A stretch of DNA of 64,000 nucleotides, from assembly GCA_025451035.1 (NCBI GenBank), contig JANWLE010000063.1:26836-90835 (forward strand). Reading direction: 5' to 3'. Positions within the stretch are counted from its first letter, which is position 1, and every line of letters starts with the position of its first letter. This stretch comes from Solirubrobacteraceae bacterium (GTDB lineage: Bacteria; Actinomycetota; Thermoleophilia; Solirubrobacterales; Solirubrobacteraceae). Shown here piece by piece: positions 56,405 through 64,000 of this stretch. The notes beneath the pieces were generated by a model. That model saw only the letters and a list, made by a program, of their open reading frames with translations, made no database searches and was not told where the DNA came from. Made by a program: the position numbers and the translations under genes.

Positions 56405-57598
56405 TCATGCTTGGGCCTCAAGGTCGGGTGCGCCGAGCTGGCTGATTCTCTTGGCGATTCGCCAGCAGCGCATCAACGCCAGCGTCGGTGCGATCACTGG
56501 GCCAAGCCCAGAACCCACCCGGCTGGCGACTGAGTTCGGTCGCTCGCTCGCGGAACTTGGTGCTGACCCGTAGTAGGCGATCACGCCGACCATGGTCATG
56601 AGGTGGTGTGCGCCGTCGACTGTCGTCTGCGCTCGTGTGGCGACCGATTGCACGAGCTTTCGTAGCCGCAGCTCGAGTAGCTGCTGATCGCCCCCGTAGT
56701 AGTCCAGGTACCCTCGCTGCCCGGCTTGAGTGTCCTCGGGGCGGTCCACGACGCTATCGAGCATCGTCAACGCGCCGATGTACAGGTAGAGATCGGCAAT
56801 CGCGCCTGCCTGCTCAACGGTCGTTTGCGGTCTCGAGGCGGCGGCGATGAGGGCGTGGACAGCCAGGATTGATCCCGCCGCGCCCGCCAAGAACTCCTGC
56901 CAGCCAAGCCCGCTGCCGGCGGGTTGGCTCAGCGCCCATTGCTGTGCCTGGCCTGCGCCGAGGGTCACCGCCGCGTGATTTCGGGTCTGGGCCTGCGCGC
57001 ACAGCTGCGCGCTGGCGAGCGCCGATTGCGCGACGGCTGCTCTACCTGGCAATCGTTCAAACGACGCGTATACAGCGCCGACCAGCGACTGCAGATAGCC
57101 GCCGTCTGCGCTCGGGCGCCCCACTGGGTAGTAGGTGCGCGGCGAAGCCGCTGGCGACAGGCAGTCGCGCAGCGCTTCGAACAGGCGCTCACCGTCGCGC
57201 AGCGGATCTATCAGGGGCTGCTCGCCGAGGATGTCAAGGTAGTCATAGAGGACCTGCAGAGCGACGATCGCGTCGATAACATCGCGGCGCGCTACACGCG
57301 GTGCGAGCGTAGCCAGCGTCGTGGCGGCCTGAACGTTGAAGTGCTCGCCGCGCAGCTTGGTCAGTGCCAGCCCGCGTAGCTCTGGGTCTGGGATCGCGCC
57401 AGCCGCGTCTTCCCATCGCTGCAACTGCAGGCGCACGCGTGGCTTGACTAGCGGCCAGTAGCGGAGGTTCGCGCGGATGAGCGCAGCGTTCGCCGTGAGT
57501 ATCATCCGCGCGCGTGTAGCCCGCCGCGCGCGTTCTCGCGGCACGCTCTCTCCGAGGTGCCCGGGCGGCTCTAGCGTGATGGAAAGCGATCTACTCAT
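56405..57598 (-). CDS. DUF2600/YtpB-like protein (terpene-synthase-like family)
   Basis: WEDAAGAIPDPELRGLALTKLRGEHFNVQAATTLATLAP; Asp motifs LYDYLDILGE and LTMLDSVVDRPEDTQAG. Confidence 0.75.
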   Translation of the reverse strand: MSRSLSITLEPPGHLGESVPRERARRATRARMILTANAALIRANLRYWPLVKPRVRLQLQRWEDAAGAIPDPELRGLALTKLRGEHFNVQAATTLATLAPRVARRDVIDAIVALQVLYDYLDILGEQPLIDPLRDGERLFEALRDCLSPAASPRTYYPVGRPSADGGYLQSLVGAVYASFERLPGRAAVAQSALASAQLCAQAQTRNHAAVTLGAGQAQQWALSQPAGSGLGWQEFLAGAAGSILAVHALIAAASRPQTTVEQAGAIADLYLYIGALTMLDSVVDRPEDTQAGQRGYLDYYGGDQQLLELRLRKLVQSVATRAQTTVDGAHHLMTMVGVIAYYGSAPSSASERPNSVASRVGSGLGPVIAPTLALMRCWRIAKRISQLGAPDLEAQA

Positions 57599-60185
57599 TC
57601 AAGGCCAGGGCGGGAGAGACACGTGACGCACGCCAGCCGGGCACGGCCACGACTGCCATTACTGCGACGATCATGAGGGTGAACACCTCGATCGGTCTAA
57701 AGCTCGCGCCGAGGCGAGCTACGGGGAAGCCCGTGACGTGCGCGAGATAACCATCGATCACGAGCTGGCCGTAGATGCCTGCCACTGCGCCTGTCAGGCA
57801 GCCCGCGCTCAACATCAAGGTCGACTCGAGCATAAGCACTCGCCGCAGCCGGTGCGAGCGTACGCCGGACAGTCGCAGCCCTGCGAGCGATACGCGGCGC
57901 TGCCAGATCGCCGAGGTCAGCGCCGCAGACATCGCGAGGATCGCGGCTACCAGCAACAGCGTGGAGATGTCTCCGAGCTGGCTGAGTCCTGCGCTCGTCA
58001 GGGCGGTGATGTTTTCTTCGCGTGTCTGCGCGCTGGAGACTTCAAGCCCTGAGTTCGGGCCGAGCGTCTGCGCGATCTCTTGGCGCACCACGGTGCTATT
58101 GGCGTCAGGTTGCAGTTGCACTGCTAGCGCGGTTGGCGCGCTCGAGCTCCACAGCCGGCTGTAGTCGCCTGCGCTCATGAAGAGCACGCCAGGACTCCAG
58201 GCTAGGTTCGTTGTCGTGGCGGCGATCTTGAAGGTGGCGTTGCCTCCTGGCGTCGGCACCGTCAGCATGCCGCCGACGCCTGTGTGGTGTTCTTCTGCGA
58301 TCTGCTGGGAGACGGCGACCCAGCCCGATTCACGCAGGAGGCTGATCGCCCTTGCCGGGTTGCCGCTGACGATTTGGCTTTTGAGCACTTCACGATTGGC
58401 CCCGGGTGGTCGTGCGATTACCCACACTCGTCGGTTGCCGAGTTGCAGGAATCCGCCAGCGAAGGACGCCACGCTGGCTACGCCGGGTACTCGACCTATC
58501 CGCGAGGTGTAGTTGTCCGCGCGGAAATCGAGCGTGGCTTGATTGTCGCCAGGGTTTGTAACCCAAATAGCCGCGTCGGCGCAATAGCTGCGGGTGAAGC
58601 TAGCTATTCCTCGCAGCAGGTCTTCGCGCGAGCCGCCCAAGGCAACGCTGCCGAACAGCGCTACCGCGCCGGTGGCTGCAAGCGCAAGCGAGCGCAACGT
58701 CGCGCTCCTCAGCGCGGTCAGCGCCACGGGCAGTGTCGTCAGGCCCTGGTAGCGCCTAGCCACGGCGCGCGCGGTGCCTAGCACGCCCGCGAGTACGAGA
58801 GGCACGACCAAAACGGTTCCCAGCGCCAAGAGGCCGCACGCAAGCAGCGCGCGAGAAGGGACCAGGATAAACAGGACCATGGTGATTGCGATCAAGGCGA
58901 GCGCCACGATCGACAGCCTTCGTTGTGCGGGCGTGCTGAGAGTGTTGCCGGGCACGCCTTCCTCCAGATAAATCGCATCGAGCGTGTGTCCCCGCCGCAG
59001 GTCGAGCAGGGGCACAGCTGCAGCCAGGCAGGTCGCGAGCACGCCTCCCGCGAACGACAGGATCAGCGGTTGAGTGCCTATCACGGTCCCGCTGCCGAGC
59101 GTGAACGCCTCGTCCAGATAGGCGGAGGACTCGTGGAATACGCCGTGAGACAGGGCGTATCCCCCGACGAGGCCGATCAGGGACGCGGCGATGCCGAGAG
59201 CAATCGTCTGGGACAGGAACATCTGCACGATTGCGCTGCGCTTGGTGCCGATCAGACGCAGATCGGCGATCGCCTGACGTCGCTCGGGGACGGTCAACAG
59301 CAGCGCGTTGAAGGCGAATAGGAAGCCCAGCAGCGTGCTGATCGCGGCAAAAAAAGCGCTCGCCTGGTCGCTCGGCCGGAGCGCTTGACGCAGCAGGCCG
59401 AGGTCGGCGTCGGCCGTTTGAACTGTGAAATGTTGGCCGGCAACCGATTCAAGCTCCTTGCGCACGTTTGCGTGCGTCGCGGGATCTGTCTGCACCAGGA
59501 TGCGTGTGATGCGCCCATCCAAGCGGGCCAGATGCTGCAGGCGGTCCAGCGGCATAACGGCGACCGGCGCTGCCGACAGCGCGCCAAAGGCTTCGCGGCC
59601 AAGCACAGCGACAACCTTCATGCGGGTGGCGATGCCGCGCAGCTCGAGCGTGACGTCGGAGGTCTCGTTCACCGTCTGCGAGACGCTGCTCGCGGGAGTG
59701 GTTATGCCGAGCTGGCGCGCCGTGGTGGTGCTCAACCCGATTCCCCCCGGGCCGTTCCCGCCGGGCGAGAGTGTCGCGATTGGGAGCGTGTGTGCGAGCC
59801 CATCGAGGACGACTAGGCTGGTGTCGGTGCCGGCTAGATTCACGGTGAGGCGACGGCCGTGAGGGCCTACCAGGGTCGCTGTCTGTTCCAGTAGAGGACC
59901 GGCCTGCTTGACCCCCTGCAGGTGTTCGACTCGGGTCAGTAGAGCTTCGGGCAGCCCGTAGGTGTCGCGGGCGCGTAGCTGCAGCGTCGCCGGACCGATC
60001 ACGGTCTGCACGACTTCTCGCGCCGAGCCGGTGATACTGCCACTGACGACGGTGGTGGCGAACACGAGCGCGACGGCCACGGCGACACCAACGCCAGCCA
60101 ACAGCTCCTGCACCGCGTGCGCGCGTAGCCGGCGGCTGTACAGGTAGATCAGTGCGTACGGCCGCATGAACGTTCTGGCTCGCAA
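57591..60185 (-). CDS. ABC transporter permease, FtsX-like, 864 aa
   Basis: Two FtsX-like TM blocks (AFFAAISTLLGFLFAFNALLLTVPERRQAIADLRLIGTKR; SAALTSAIWQRRVSLAGLRLSGVRSHRLRRVL). Confidence 0.88.
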   Translation of the reverse strand: MRARTFMRPYALIYLYSRRLRAHAVQELLAGVGVAVAVALVFATTVVSGSITGSAREVVQTVIGPATLQLRARDTYGLPEALLTRVEHLQGVKQAGPLLEQTATLVGPHGRRLTVNLAGTDTSLVVLDGLAHTLPIATLSPGGNGPGGIGLSTTTARQLGITTPASSVSQTVNETSDVTLELRGIATRMKVVAVLGREAFGALSAAPVAVMPLDRLQHLARLDGRITRILVQTDPATHANVRKELESVAGQHFTVQTADADLGLLRQALRPSDQASAFFAAISTLLGFLFAFNALLLTVPERRQAIADLRLIGTKRSAIVQMFLSQTIALGIAASLIGLVGGYALSHGVFHESSAYLDEAFTLGSGTVIGTQPLILSFAGGVLATCLAAAVPLLDLRRGHTLDAIYLEEGVPGNTLSTPAQRRLSIVALALIAITMVLFILVPSRALLACGLLALGTVLVVPLVLAGVLGTARAVARRYQGLTTLPVALTALRSATLRSLALAATGAVALFGSVALGGSREDLLRGIASFTRSYCADAAIWVTNPGDNQATLDFRADNYTSRIGRVPGVASVASFAGGFLQLGNRRVWVIARPPGANREVLKSQIVSGNPARAISLLRESGWVAVSQQIAEEHHTGVGGMLTVPTPGGNATFKIAATTTNLAWSPGVLFMSAGDYSRLWSSSAPTALAVQLQPDANSTVVRQEIAQTLGPNSGLEVSSAQTREENITALTSAGLSQLGDISTLLLVAAILAMSAALTSAIWQRRVSLAGLRLSGVRSHRLRRVLMLESTLMLSAGCLTGAVAGIYGQLVIDGYLAHVTGFPVARLGASFRPIEVFTLMIVAVMAVVAVPGWRASRVSPALALNE

Positions 60186-60189
60186 CGGC

Positions 60190-60942
60190 TCAGTCTGTCC
60201 CAGTGCTCGTCACCCCCGTGGCGCTCGGTAGCTCAGACGGCGCAGCGCCCTGAAGCTGGTGTCGCACAGTGTGCTCCACAAGCTTGCCGTCGCGTAGCGC
60301 GCAGCGTCTATCGGCTCCGGCTGCTGCGTCTGCGTCGTGAGTGACCAGCAGAACACTCGCGCCGGTCTCGCGCGCAATGTTGTGGAGGAGGTTGACCACA
60401 TGTCTGCTTCTTGCGCTGTCTAGGTTGCCGGTTGGCTCATCGGCGAGAATCAACTGCGGATCGGCTACCAGCGCGCGCGCGATCGCGACGCGCTGGCGCT
60501 CTCCGCCGGACAGCTCCGCGGGCGTGTGCTTGAGCCGATCGCCGAGGCCGACGCGCTCTAGCCAACTCGCCGCCTGCCTGCAGGCCTCGCGCATACCCAC
60601 CCCGCCCAGCAGCAGCTTCATCGAGGCGTTCTCGACGGCCGAGACACGAGGCATTAGGTGCGGGTTCTGGTAGATGAATCCGATGTTTCGTCGCAGGTGC
60701 TCCGAAGCATCCTGCTCGGACAGGGAGGACACCTCTCGTCCCTGGTAGCGGATTACGCCGCGCTCGGGTTTCAGTAGAGCCGCGATGAGCAGCAGTAGCG
60801 TTGTCTTGCCGGACCCGCTCGGCCCGTGCAGGGCGACCATTTCGCCCTTGTTGACCGTCAAGCTCACTCCATCGACGGCCCTGACGTTCTCGCCAGGGCC
60901 TCGATAGTGCTTGACGACATGGTCAAGCTCAAGTGTGACCAA
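60190..60942 (-). CDS. ABC transporter ATP-binding protein (MacB/LolD-like)
   Basis: GPSGSGKTTLLLLIAAL, LSGGERQRVAIARAL, LILADEPTGNLDS, LLVTHD. Confidence 0.95.
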   Translation of the reverse strand: MVTLELDHVVKHYRGPGENVRAVDGVSLTVNKGEMVALHGPSGSGKTTLLLLIAALLKPERGVIRYQGREVSSLSEQDASEHLRRNIGFIYQNPHLMPRVSAVENASMKLLLGGVGMREACRQAASWLERVGLGDRLKHTPAELSGGERQRVAIARALVADPQLILADEPTGNLDSARSRHVVNLLHNIARETGASVLLVTHDADAAAGADRRCALRDGKLVEHTVRHQLQGAAPSELPSATGVTSTGTD

Positions 60943-60996
60943 GGCGATTCTCCAGATCGTTTTGGGGTGTGAGCGGGGTTGGGGAGCGCCGCTCCA

Positions 60997-61698
60997 TCAG
61001 GCCGGGCGACGCAACGGCACTACCGATGCCAACTCGGGCGCGAGACTGCCATGCAGCTCACCATCGCTTAGCGACAACGCCCGGTCAGCGCCAGCAAGCG
61101 CCGTCGTCTCGCCTGTGCTCATGAGGACCGCGATGTGTTCGTCGGCGAGCGAACGCACCAAGAGCAGGATCTCGTCGCGGTCGAGCAGGTCCACCCCCTT
61201 TGTCGGCTCATCTATGACCAACAGGGATGGCTGCAACGTGAGTGCGCGCGCGATCATCACGCGCACCGACTCAGCGGCATCGAGCTCGTGGGCCCGCATT
61301 ACCCCGCAATGCTCTGCGCTCGTGCGCTCCAACGCGGTCCATGCGCGCTGCTTAGCCTTGCTTCTCCTGACGCCCCGCGCTAGCTGCGTGACTATCAGCT
61401 GCTCGAGCAGCGCGCCTTCCTGGCTGCCGCGAAAAGACTGCCAGCAGTAACCGATCTTTCCCCCGAGCAGGTCCGCCGAACGGGTCGAGAGATTGCGTCC
61501 TTCAAACCGCACCATCCCGTTATCCGGCGCGTCGATGCCGGCTGCGATCCGGAGCAGTGTCGATCGGCCGGAACGGCGTCGCCCCCATACGGCGACGAGC
61601 TCGCCTGTGTGTATCTCAAGCGAAGCGTTGTGCAACACGACGTGCTCGCTCGAGTCGCCGTAGCGCTTGCTGACACGGTCGAGCTCAAGCAGGCTCAT
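60997..61698 (-). CDS. Degenerate ABC ATP-binding protein
   Basis: Walker A GRRRSGRST, signature LDAAES, Walker B LLVIDEPTKGVD, H-loop position STGE. Confidence 0.88.
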   Translation of the reverse strand: MSLLELDRVSKRYGDSSEHVVLHNASLEIHTGELVAVWGRRRSGRSTLLRIAAGIDAPDNGMVRFEGRNLSTRSADLLGGKIGYCWQSFRGSQEGALLEQLIVTQLARGVRRSKAKQRAWTALERTSAEHCGVMRAHELDAAESVRVMIARALTLQPSLLVIDEPTKGVDLLDRDEILLLVRSLADEHIAVLMSTGETTALAGADRALSLSDGELHGSLAPELASVVPLRRPA

Positions 61699-62288
61699 CG
61701 TCGTCCGTTGCGCCCTTCCAAGAGGGCCTTGAACTCTCGGCGGGCGTACTCAATCCACGGCAACTTCGCTTCCATGGCCAGTCGCTCGTCCTCGGACGCG
61801 AGCCTACTGGCCACGTTTGCCGCGGCCTCGGGCGCCTTGGCATCCGCTGAATGCGGAGGCGTCTTGACCGCGCTCTCGAGGCAAAGCTGCTCGTAGCGGT
61901 CGATGACCGCCAAAGCGGCCTGTGGATCGAGAGCCGCGAGTTCACGCGCGAACAGACGCGTGCGCCTACGATCCTCGCTGACTTGCGCGATCAACCGATC
62001 TTGATAGCGGCGCACACCCTCGTCGGTAGCCCTGTAGTGCAGCTTCGGCTGCCGCACAGCACTGCCCTGAGCTGCGCTTGTCACGACCTCTTCGATCAGG
62101 CCGCGGCGCACCAATGCGTCCAGTGCGTTGTAAATCTGCGAAGCGCTGCTCAGGGTGAGCAGCTCCCCGTAGGTTCGTTCAAATCGCTGCACGAGCTCGT
62201 AGCCGTAGCTGGGCCGCTCGATCATCAGCCCCAAGAGCGCCCAGTTGACCGGAGAACGCATCTCGGCAGCACTCCCCACCCTAATCAT
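61695..62288 (-). CDS. PadR-family transcriptional regulator
   Basis: RSPVNWALLGLMIERPSYGYELVQRFERTYGELLTLSSASQIYNALDALVRRGLIEEV wHTH; start MIRVGSAAEM at 62288. Confidence 0.88.
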   Translation of the reverse strand: MIRVGSAAEMRSPVNWALLGLMIERPSYGYELVQRFERTYGELLTLSSASQIYNALDALVRRGLIEEVVTSAAQGSAVRQPKLHYRATDEGVRRYQDRLIAQVSEDRRRTRLFARELAALDPQAALAVIDRYEQLCLESAVKTPPHSADAKAPEAAANVASRLASEDERLAMEAKLPWIEYARREFKALLEGRNGRR

Positions 62289-62343
62289 GCTCCCCTCCCA
62301 TCTTGTCGCCAAGCGTACAAAAGACGCAAGAACATTCACAAGA

Positions 62344-62355
62344 TAGAACCTTCTA
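62344..62355. promoter_or_regulatory. Repeated palindromic element, copy 1 (TAGAACCTTCTA), in the padR upstream region
   Basis: Shared context ATTCACAAGATAGAACCTTCTA. Confidence 0.7.
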
Positions 62356-62703
62356 GTAAATAGAGCAAGCCCTGTCCCGGCCAGCTGTGCGGATGCTCTC
62401 CTGCGGGTTCTCCTAGCTGACGCCGTCGCTCGCGAAGGCCCGCTGCGTGCAGCTATCTGGCGCGCGGGTCTCACGAGGGGCATATCCCTCGCGGTCAATC
62501 CGGGGTCTAGATTATTAGGAGGGGGCAGTAAGGAGCAACTGCTCGCCCAACGCTAAGACTTGCAGGCGACGGGGCATGGCGATATGCGCTGGCACGCGCG
62601 GAGTAAGTGCTAGAGTGAAAACGCGCCGACGCCAAACAGTCGGTGATGACTAGCAGGGCGTGACACCAGCAGGAAGAGGGGGCTACGGTGTCGCTGGGTA
62701 CTC

Positions 62704-62727
62704 GCAAAGTAGAACCTTCTAGTTTGC
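62704..62727. promoter_or_regulatory. Repeated palindromic element, copy 2, extended palindrome GCAAA-G-TAGAA-CC-TTCTA-G-TTTGC
   Basis: Core TAGAACCTTCTA at 62710-62721; context ACTCGCAAAG conserved with the other copies. Confidence 0.7.
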
Positions 62728-62817
62728 GGATTGTCACGTACGACCTAAGTGACGATCATCTGCGCGCGCAGGTGTGAAGGTCGTCGGGCGGGGTCACGGG
62801 TCTTATTGTGGTCATGA

Positions 62818-63111
62818 CAAGCTTGGAAGGTCGATTTCAAGCTTGCCCGCTAAGCAAAAGCTTCGCGGGTCCGATGGCTTCGAAGGCCGGCGTAACAGCA
62901 GTTTTTGTTTTTAGACGATTTGAGTCACGCACTCTCAGCTTTGAGAGTGCGGGCACCCTCCCTCGTTACGTCCCAACGCGCGATGGACGGGTACCGACTC
63001 AACCTTGAGCACTCCTCACCTACCTCTCCGGCAGTGCTCAAGGAGGCTGAGATCGCATAGCGATATCTAGCCTCAGAGGTGCCGCGCCCTCCCACACGGG
63101 CGCGGCACCTC
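62818..63111. ncRNA. Candidate structured non-coding region A (hairpin array); strand undetermined
   Basis: Hairpins 62846-62869, 62928-62951 (10-bp stem), 63003-63043 (11-bp stem, 19-nt pyrimidine-rich loop), 63043-63074 (imperfect), 63076-63111 (14-bp stem GAGGTGCCGCGCCC/GGGCGCGGCACCTC). Confidence 0.4.
62860..62874 (+). repeat. 15-nt direct repeat GCTTCGCGGGTCCGA, copy 1
   Basis: Exact match to 63649-63663; both copies form the 3' arm of a hairpin. Confidence 0.7.
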
Positions 63112-63374
63112 CCCTCTACGTGACGACGAGGGCCGCGTCAGTCCTAACCGCCCGGTTCCTCTCGCGCGCCTACGAGTCGCGTGATACAAAGAAAGCTGGC
63201 AGAGATAACCGTTACACGCTACGATAAAACGCCAAGGCTTATCGACAACGAGTCAATAAGCCGTTTGCTCCCTGCCCGCCGCCAACATGGGCTCGTAAAG
63301 TTATGCAGGTCCCGACCAGGGCGGAGTCATCGTGGAGCGGGCACGCAGTGCAAGGGCCCGGACTACTCACAAAC

Positions 63375-63386
63375 TAGAACCTTCTA
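63375..63386. promoter_or_regulatory. Repeated palindromic element, copy 3 (TAGAACCTTCTA)
   Basis: Context ACTCACAAACTAGAACCTTCTA. Confidence 0.7.
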
Positions 63387-63611
63387 CGTTCGGGATTGAT
63401 ATGCCGGGCCCCCGGCAGGATTATCTCTCCAGCATGAGTTGGGGAGAGGTTACGGGGGTGCTGGTGACGTACCCGAGGCGCTCGTGTCTCGTGGCTGCGC
63501 ACCGCACAGGTTCCTCTTCCTGAGAGACAAAAGCCGGAGAGGATATTTAGGGTTATAGCCTGTGAGCAGGCATACCGGGTGCTCAGCTGCGGTGGTAACA
63601 CTGTGGTTGGG

Positions 63612-63810
63612 GGCGAAGCCTTCGGCTTCGCCTGTCCGCGAAGCTCGCGCTTCGCGGGTCCGAGATTTTCAAGGGCGTCGCCGATAGGCACGCCGTGGTA
63701 ACTGTTGTACTCCAGCCGCGTCGAAGAGAGCGGCGGGGAGGTATAGAACAAGGAGGGATCTCAGCGAGATCCTGTGCTCACTTTTTGTGCCGGACGCGAT
63801 AGCGTCCGGC
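63612..63810. ncRNA. Candidate structured non-coding region B (hairpin array); strand undetermined
   Basis: Perfect 9-bp hairpins 63612-63632, 63636-63657, 63789-63810 and a 7-bp hairpin 63756-63772. Confidence 0.4.
63649..63663 (+). repeat. 15-nt direct repeat GCTTCGCGGGTCCGA, copy 2
   Basis: Exact match to 62860-62874. Confidence 0.7.
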
Positions 63811-64000
63811 GGTGCAGTTATGGTAACTATCAGAGTTTTTGCTCAGCCATCCCGAAGTGGTTAGGCGTGAGCTTGTGAGACGAGCAGGAAGTCTTGGATG
63901 ACGCCCTGTGGTGACTTCAATATTTATTGTTTCTAAGGCTGGATGCCTGATCTTTCAATTTTTCAATCTTTCTGTTTCTTTTTCCTGACACATTGCAATC

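What the first reader, a model, noticed from the sequence alone, without database searches (positions are those of the whole stretch)
62335..63386. Three copies of a conserved ~22-nt element, AYTCRCAARnTAGAACCTTCTA, one in the padR promoter region
Seen: TAGAACCTTCTA (perfect inverted repeat TAGAA-CC-TTCTA) at 62344, 62710 and 63375. All have the same asymmetric flank: ATTCACAAGA, ACTCGCAAAG, ACTCACAAAC. Copy 2 extends to a 24-bp palindrome GCAAAG-TAGAACCTTCTA-GTTTGC. Copy 1 is about 55 bp upstream of the padR start. Inference: it is the operator/promoter of the PadR protein, and the other two copies drive transcripts in an ORF-free region. On the minus strand each copy reads TTGyGA next to the palindrome, which could be a -35.
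Basis: partly seen in the sequence, partly recalled or inferred. Interest (0 to 1): 0.75.

Follow-up and report, generated by a model that had tools for sequence, protein, structure and literature searches.

The report
PadR operators before two structured RNAs
The three repeats are very probably binding sites for the PadR regulator encoded next to them: one controls its own ABC-transporter operon, and the other two sit just upstream of predicted promoters for what look like two unknown, strongly folded non-coding RNAs.

Summary
TAGAACCTTCTA occurs at 62344, 62710 and 63375 with the stated flanks. TAGAANNTTCTA occurs nowhere else in the 2.87-Mb genome.

A weight matrix built only from these copies finds sites upstream of padR homologues in sister Solirubrobacterales genomes (16 of 46; Fisher p = 7e-8), chiefly for the nearest PadRs. 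One sister padR operator reads TACTCACAAACTAGAAGTTTATAGTTTGTGAATAGTC, so the "asymmetric flank" is the outer arm of a ~36-40-bp operator. The minus-strand -35 reading fails for copies 2 and 3: no -10 follows there, and relatives keep the arm whatever the distance to the -10.

Copies 2 and 3 each lie 9 bp upstream of a plus-strand sigma70-like promoter. Each precedes an ORF-free block of extreme RNA folding (z about -8.8 and -7.1; adjoining spacers near 0). The second block has a clear paralogue elsewhere in the genome, with conserved linkers and 16 of 37 hand-placed pairs changed on both sides. No Rfam family matches.

Best reading: a PadR autoregulates its ABC-transporter operon and also controls two structured RNA genes of an undescribed, so far single-species family. 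Binding, sign of control and RNA function are untested.

The parts
62334..62366 (-). Operator copy 1 (core 62344-62355), in the padR promoter; padR-proximal arm CTTGTGAATGT
   Evidence: homologous operators upstream of padR in sister genomes
62312..62341 (-). Possible padR promoter: TTGTGA (62336-62341), 18-nt spacer, TACGCT (62312-62317)
   Evidence: the TACGCT-type -10 (TAnnCT) recurs in padR promoters of relatives; weak on its own
61698..62288 (-). padR gene, 196 aa, PadR-1 size; ATG start with GGGAGGGGAGC ribosome-binding site
   Evidence: PF03551 E=6.9e-12; 22 of 24 genus genomes hold homologues
57591..61698 (-). Two ABC ATPases (60997-61698, 60190-60942) and an FtsX-type permease (57591-60185) in one apparent operon with padR
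   Evidence: the same padR-ATPase-ATPase order in the relative's locus L126
62699..62733 (+). Operator copy 2 (core 62710-62721), both arms present
62731..62759 (+). Promoter-like TTGTCA-17-GATCAT, 9 bp downstream of the copy 2 core
   Evidence: same offset as copy 3
62760..63115 (+). Candidate structured RNA 1 (about 350 nt), ending in a 14-bp G+C-rich hairpin 63076-63111 without a T run
   Evidence: z=-8.8, MFE structure; hairpin I9; R1 domain 62832-62912, 22.6 bits
63364..63398 (+). Operator copy 3 (core 63375-63386), left arm complete, right arm weak
63396..63424 (+). Promoter-like TTGATA-17-GATTAT, 9 bp downstream of the copy 3 core
63425..63850 (+). Candidate structured RNA 2 (at least 425 nt; may run on towards the contig end)
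   Evidence: z=-7.1; homologous to the RNA at G000:C25 10179-10390 with compensatory changes
63612..63810 (+). Conserved domain of RNA 2: hairpins H1-H6 with linkers GGGTCYGAGATTYTC and GTGGTAACTGTTGT

Best explanation
The element is the operator of the adjacent PadR-1-type regulator: a palindrome of about 36-40 bp with core TAGAA-NN-TTCTA and outer arms CTAYTCRCAA / TTGYGARTAG. Copy 1 controls the padR-ABC ATPase-ABC ATPase-FtsX operon (autoregulation). Copies 2 and 3 place two plus-strand, sigma70-like promoters under the same PadR. These promoters transcribe two ORF-free, highly structured RNAs, of which the second and probably the first share a domain with a third RNA on another contig. 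When the PadR ligand (probably a substrate of the transporter) changes its DNA binding, transporter and RNAs would respond together. Shown by sequence comparison: operator identity and its link with padR promoters; position of promoters and folded blocks; RNA-level conservation between RNA 2 and its paralogue. Inferred: PadR binding, transcription, direction of control (repression is the default for PadR; activation is not excluded), ligand, and RNA function.
For: The motif is found only here in the genome. The arm-plus-core pattern, at most 1 mismatch, has 7 hits in 24 genus genomes: 3 here, 2 (both strands of one site) and 1 at padR promoters, and 1 elsewhere; control 1. The matrix made from copies 1-3 alone is significant at 16 of 46 padR upstream regions, Fisher p=6.7e-8, mostly among PadRs at least 50% identical. 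In 22 loci of up to 10 kb the sites found lie almost only 100-300 bp upstream of padR; this second matrix was trained partly on such sites. The G019 operator half CTACTCACAAACTAGAA-like arm and core match copy 3. Two promoters at the same offset. Structured blocks begin at copies 2 and 3, with z about 0 in the flanking spacers. The RNA paralogue has its own TTGACA-16-TATAGA promoter and 16 double compensatory changes.
Against: No binding or expression data. No sister genome has the RNAs or extra operators before RNAs, so the regulon extension rests on one species. Copies 2 and 3 present the strong arm leftwards, opposite to its orientation in padR promoters relative to transcription. The RNA paralogue on C25 lacks the operator, so PadR control is not intrinsic to the RNA family. 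The -10 hexamers GATCAT/GATTAT are poor matches. RNA 1 is only weakly linked to RNA 2 (22.6 bits, a level that chance matches reach elsewhere). Compensatory counts use hand-placed helices from two sequences.
Confidence: 0.65

Rival explanations
1. The sites are PadR operators, but copies 2 and 3 only serve the padR operon: they are auxiliary upstream operators for cooperative binding or DNA looping, and the folded blocks are not transcribed from them.
For: All three copies have the same orientation with the strong arm towards padR; a sister genome (L108) carries two or three operator-like sites in a row upstream of padR.
Against: Copies 2 and 3 lie 366 and 1031 bp from copy 1, far for such sites; each has a plus-strand promoter at an identical 9-bp offset and a folded block that starts right there.
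Confidence: 0.17
2. The sites bind PadR as an activator placed at helical phase upstream of the promoters, so PadR switches on transporter and RNAs rather than repressing them (a variant of the best explanation that differs in the sign of control).
For: In padR promoters where a TAnnCT -10 is seen, its distance from the operator centre is 32 (window), 38, 40, 42 (four loci) and 52 bp, partly in steps of a helical turn; copies 2 and 3 sit at 38 bp.
Against: Spacings were read post hoc and the -10 calls are unaided; a 36-40-bp site also overlaps the -35 of copies 2 and 3 and would block it; LmrR, a characterised PadR protein that controls a transporter, is a repressor (PMC5428041).
Confidence: 0.25
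3. The region is a mobile or repeated DNA element (MITE-like or telomere-like palindromes) whose DNA hairpins mimic RNA structure; the three motifs are element parts.
For: Both RNA-bearing loci lie at contig ends, as repeats often do; no relative holds them.
Against: Stems change by paired substitutions while loops and linkers stay, the signature of RNA selection; the C25 copy has its own strong promoter and no motif; no match in phages or plasmids.
Confidence: 0.08
4. Chance recurrence of an AT-rich 12-mer.
For: None found.
Confidence: 0.01

Closest known systems
PadR-family autoregulated transporter operons (LmrR-lmrCD, LftR-lieAB)
   Same: PadR-type winged-helix regulator tied to a drug transporter, with inverted-repeat operator sites in promoters of its own gene and the transporter (PMC5428041, PMC6457526).
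   Different: Those are PadR-2 proteins; here the protein is PadR-1 sized, the operator core is TAGAA-NN-TTCTA with outer CACAA/TTGTG arms (~36-40 bp) instead of ATGT-N8-ACAT, and two more operators precede structured RNAs.
PadR consensus operator ATGT/ACAT
   Same: Dyad-symmetric site in promoters bound by PadR proteins (PMC3506622).
   Different: No ATGT-(N)8-ACAT in any copy; paralogues in this genus use varied cores (TAGAA, AAGAAC, TTAAAAC) on one long-palindrome plan.
Large ornate bacterial ncRNAs (GOLLD, ROOL, OLE; PMC12286853)
   Same: Hundreds of nucleotides, ORF-free, many stable hairpins with conserved linkers.
   Different: No Rfam match at E<=1 in the region; found in a single genome.

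Membership tests
PadR-family transcriptional regulator (padR gene) | PF03551 winged-helix domain above the curated cutoff | tested here: met
   45.6 bits against a cutoff of 27; PDB sequence matches to 8jxk, 1xma and the PadR-family regulator 9qbd
PadR-family transcriptional regulator (padR gene) | Conserved tyrosines of the wHTH (signature per PMC6457526) | tested here: inconclusive
   Two tyrosines (Y17 and Y42 of alignment A7) are invariant among homologues; their equivalence to Y20/Y42 of Bacillus PadR was not aligned here
PadR operator | Recurrent dyad-symmetric site in promoters of padR orthologues | tested here: met
PadR operator | Canonical ATGT-(N)8-10-ACAT | tested here: not met
   absent from all three copies by inspection; so a different operator type
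PadR operator | Direct binding by the protein | not testable with these tools
   needs EMSA or DAP-seq
Known structured RNA family | Match to a curated Rfam covariance model | tested here: not met
   no match for 61500-64000 at E<=1; only two tRNAs in the window at gathering scores
Structured non-coding RNA | Folding energy below shuffled sequence and compensatory base changes | tested here: met
   z -8.8 and -7.1; for RNA 2, 16 double changes among 37 hand-placed pairs in two sequences, none broken
Structured non-coding RNA | Transcript exists | not testable with these tools
   needs RNA-seq or Northern blot

The most novel reading that the evidence does not exclude
A PadR-type drug- or stress-sensing regulator controls, through a new long operator type, two members of an undescribed family of large structured RNAs alongside its ABC transporter, giving the RNAs a physiological signal and so a way to find their function.
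Probability: 0.45. Interest if true: 0.68.

Novelty: new variant of a known kind. Interest (0 to 1): 0.5.

Why it matters
A regulator with its own transporter operon is ordinary. Two extra operators, each placed before a predicted promoter and an unknown structured RNA, are not. If confirmed, the RNAs would be an undescribed class with a known regulator and probably a small-molecule inducer, which makes their function open to direct test. The genus also offers a natural series of PadR paralogues whose recognition helices and operator cores appear to vary together, useful for working out how PadR proteins choose their sites.

Tried and rejected
Minus-strand -35 reading for copies 2 and 3: no -10 found there. 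Coding ORFs in the 62.5-63.8 kb region: no Pfam match. Rfam at permissive E-value for the region and the C25 paralogue: nothing credible. The RNA region in phages or plasmids: none. RNA model R1 in sets of 201 relatives, 146 family and 399 class genomes (overlapping sets): only this genome; the best outside hit (G343, 27.6 bits) lies inside a 776-aa ORF and is rejected. R1 in 22 padR loci: none. Best 36-bp palindrome per padR promoter: significant in only a few, so the matrix test was used instead. The first genome-contig scan with the single protein found nothing; the alignment scan worked. A row for the own-genome PadR paralogue in alignment A6 was in the wrong frame and was dropped (A7).

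Full report
Observation. TAGAANNTTCTA occurs three times in the 2,871,784-base assembly, all within 1.05 kb. The window's last base is the last base of its contig, so the region downstream of copy 3 is cut short.

The padR link. padR (61698-62288, minus) encodes 196 aa with a PadR domain, followed by two ABC ATPases and an FtsX permease. In the genus, 22 of 24 genomes hold homologues, many with several paralogues. Named relatives are mostly Solirubrobacterales MAGs. Upstream of many of these padR genes lie AT-rich palindromes. In G019 the site is GACTATTCACAAACTATAAACTTCTAGTTTGTGAGTACC, in G008 GATCTAGAAGTTTCTAGATTGTGAGTAG. Read on the other strand, the G019 operator begins TACTCACAAACTAGAA, the same 16 bases as in copy 3. 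One paralogue (L112) has a near-perfect 40-bp palindrome ACTGTTGCAAGAGTTACAACGCTGTAAGTCTTGCAACAGT.

Tests of the link. The pattern TCACAANNTANAANNTTNTA with one mismatch finds, in 24 genomes, the three window copies, the G019 operator on both strands, the G008 operator and one site away from padR. A weight matrix from the three window copies alone reaches p<0.05 upstream of 16 of 46 padR homologues (Fisher p=6.7e-8; Wilcoxon p=6e-5), mostly those with PadR at least 50% identical. A wider matrix, trained partly on the sites so found, scanned over 22 loci of up to 10 kb, finds its sites almost only 100-300 bp upstream of padR. Recognition helices and cores appear to vary together: SS(P/A)SQ(I/V)Y with TAGAA, SSRSQIY with AAGAACGTTC, SN(I/V)GH(I/V)Y with TTAAAACGTT; this is an observation on few groups, not a test.

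What the flank is. In most near relatives the GTGA arm lies on the padR side, but the -10-like TAnnCT lies 38 to 52 bp from the operator centre. A -35 would have to keep 16-19 bp to the -10, so the arm belongs to the operator. Only at copy 1 does TTGTGA also stand 18 bp from a -10 (TACGCT). On the minus strand of copies 2 and 3 there is no TAnnnT at usable distance.

Copies 2 and 3. The scan of 2.1 kb finds two sigma70-like sites against 0.4 expected. Both are on the plus strand and both begin 9 bp after the core (TTGTCA-17-GATCAT at 62731; TTGATA-17-GATTAT at 63396). The two are not independent, because the flanks of copies 2 and 3 are themselves similar. Folding z-scores are -8.8 for 62760-63130 and -7.1 for 63425-63850 on the plus strand, slightly weaker on the minus strand (-7.3 and -5.8), and close to 0 for the spacers 62360-62690 and 63131-63363. 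So two units of operator, promoter and folded RNA follow each other.

The RNAs. BLAST with the region finds a paralogue at G000:C25 10183-10271 (77%, E=7e-10), about 330 bases after a TTGACA-16-TATAGA promoter, divergent from three TetR genes. The two share six hairpins in one order, linked by GGGTCYGAGATTYTC and GTGGTAACTGTTGT. Of 37 hand-placed pairs 16 differ on both sides and none is broken; the helices were chosen by eye, which favours a low broken count. A covariance model of 96 columns recovers a weaker copy in RNA 1 (62832-62912, 22.6 bits); chance matches elsewhere reach the same score, so this link rests on context. The model finds no convincing member in sets of 201, 146 and 399 genomes, and Rfam has no match.

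Mechanism. LmrR, a PadR protein, represses its transporter operon and its own gene and is released by drugs (PMC5428041); LftR also regulates a transporter (PMC6457526). By analogy, PadR here would hold down its own operon and the two RNA promoters. The operator arm reaches the -35 of copies 2 and 3, which fits repression. The partly helical spacing of operator and -10 (32, 38, 40, 42, 52) also allows activation; the sign is open. The known PadR operator ATGT-N8-ACAT (PMC3506622) is not present, so this is a different operator type.

Verdict. The finding is real and its main inference (PadR operator) is well supported by comparison; the minus-strand promoter idea is not, except perhaps at copy 1. 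The unusual part is the pairing of two further operators with two unknown structured RNAs, supported by anatomy but without expression data.

Noticed in passing
L091 1501 (G007:C270:19520): A sister genome has the arm-plus-core operator (GGCTATTCACAACCTAGAAGCTTCTAGG) with no padR nearby, between an NHL-repeat protein gene and a small ORF without a Pfam match: regulon members outside the padR operon may exist.
   Followed up: partly
G000:C42:25292-25831 (L048, L120): A second padR paralogue of the same genome has a different operator core, AACAAGCCAAGGCTTAAAACGTTTTAACTCTTGTTATAG, and a different recognition helix.
   Followed up: partly
L011 4823-5754 (G000:C25): The RNA paralogue, with a near-consensus promoter, is divergent from three consecutive TetR-family genes; both RNA loci lie at contig ends.
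   Followed up: partly
L126 position 1575 (-3426 from padR): A second operator-like site AAATGTGAAGGTTCTAAATGTGAGTAGT in the G019 relative lies 3.4 kb from its padR.
   Followed up: no
window 56405-57598: DUF2600 gene directly downstream of the FtsX permease, overlapping it by 8 bases; possibly part of the padR operon.
   Followed up: no
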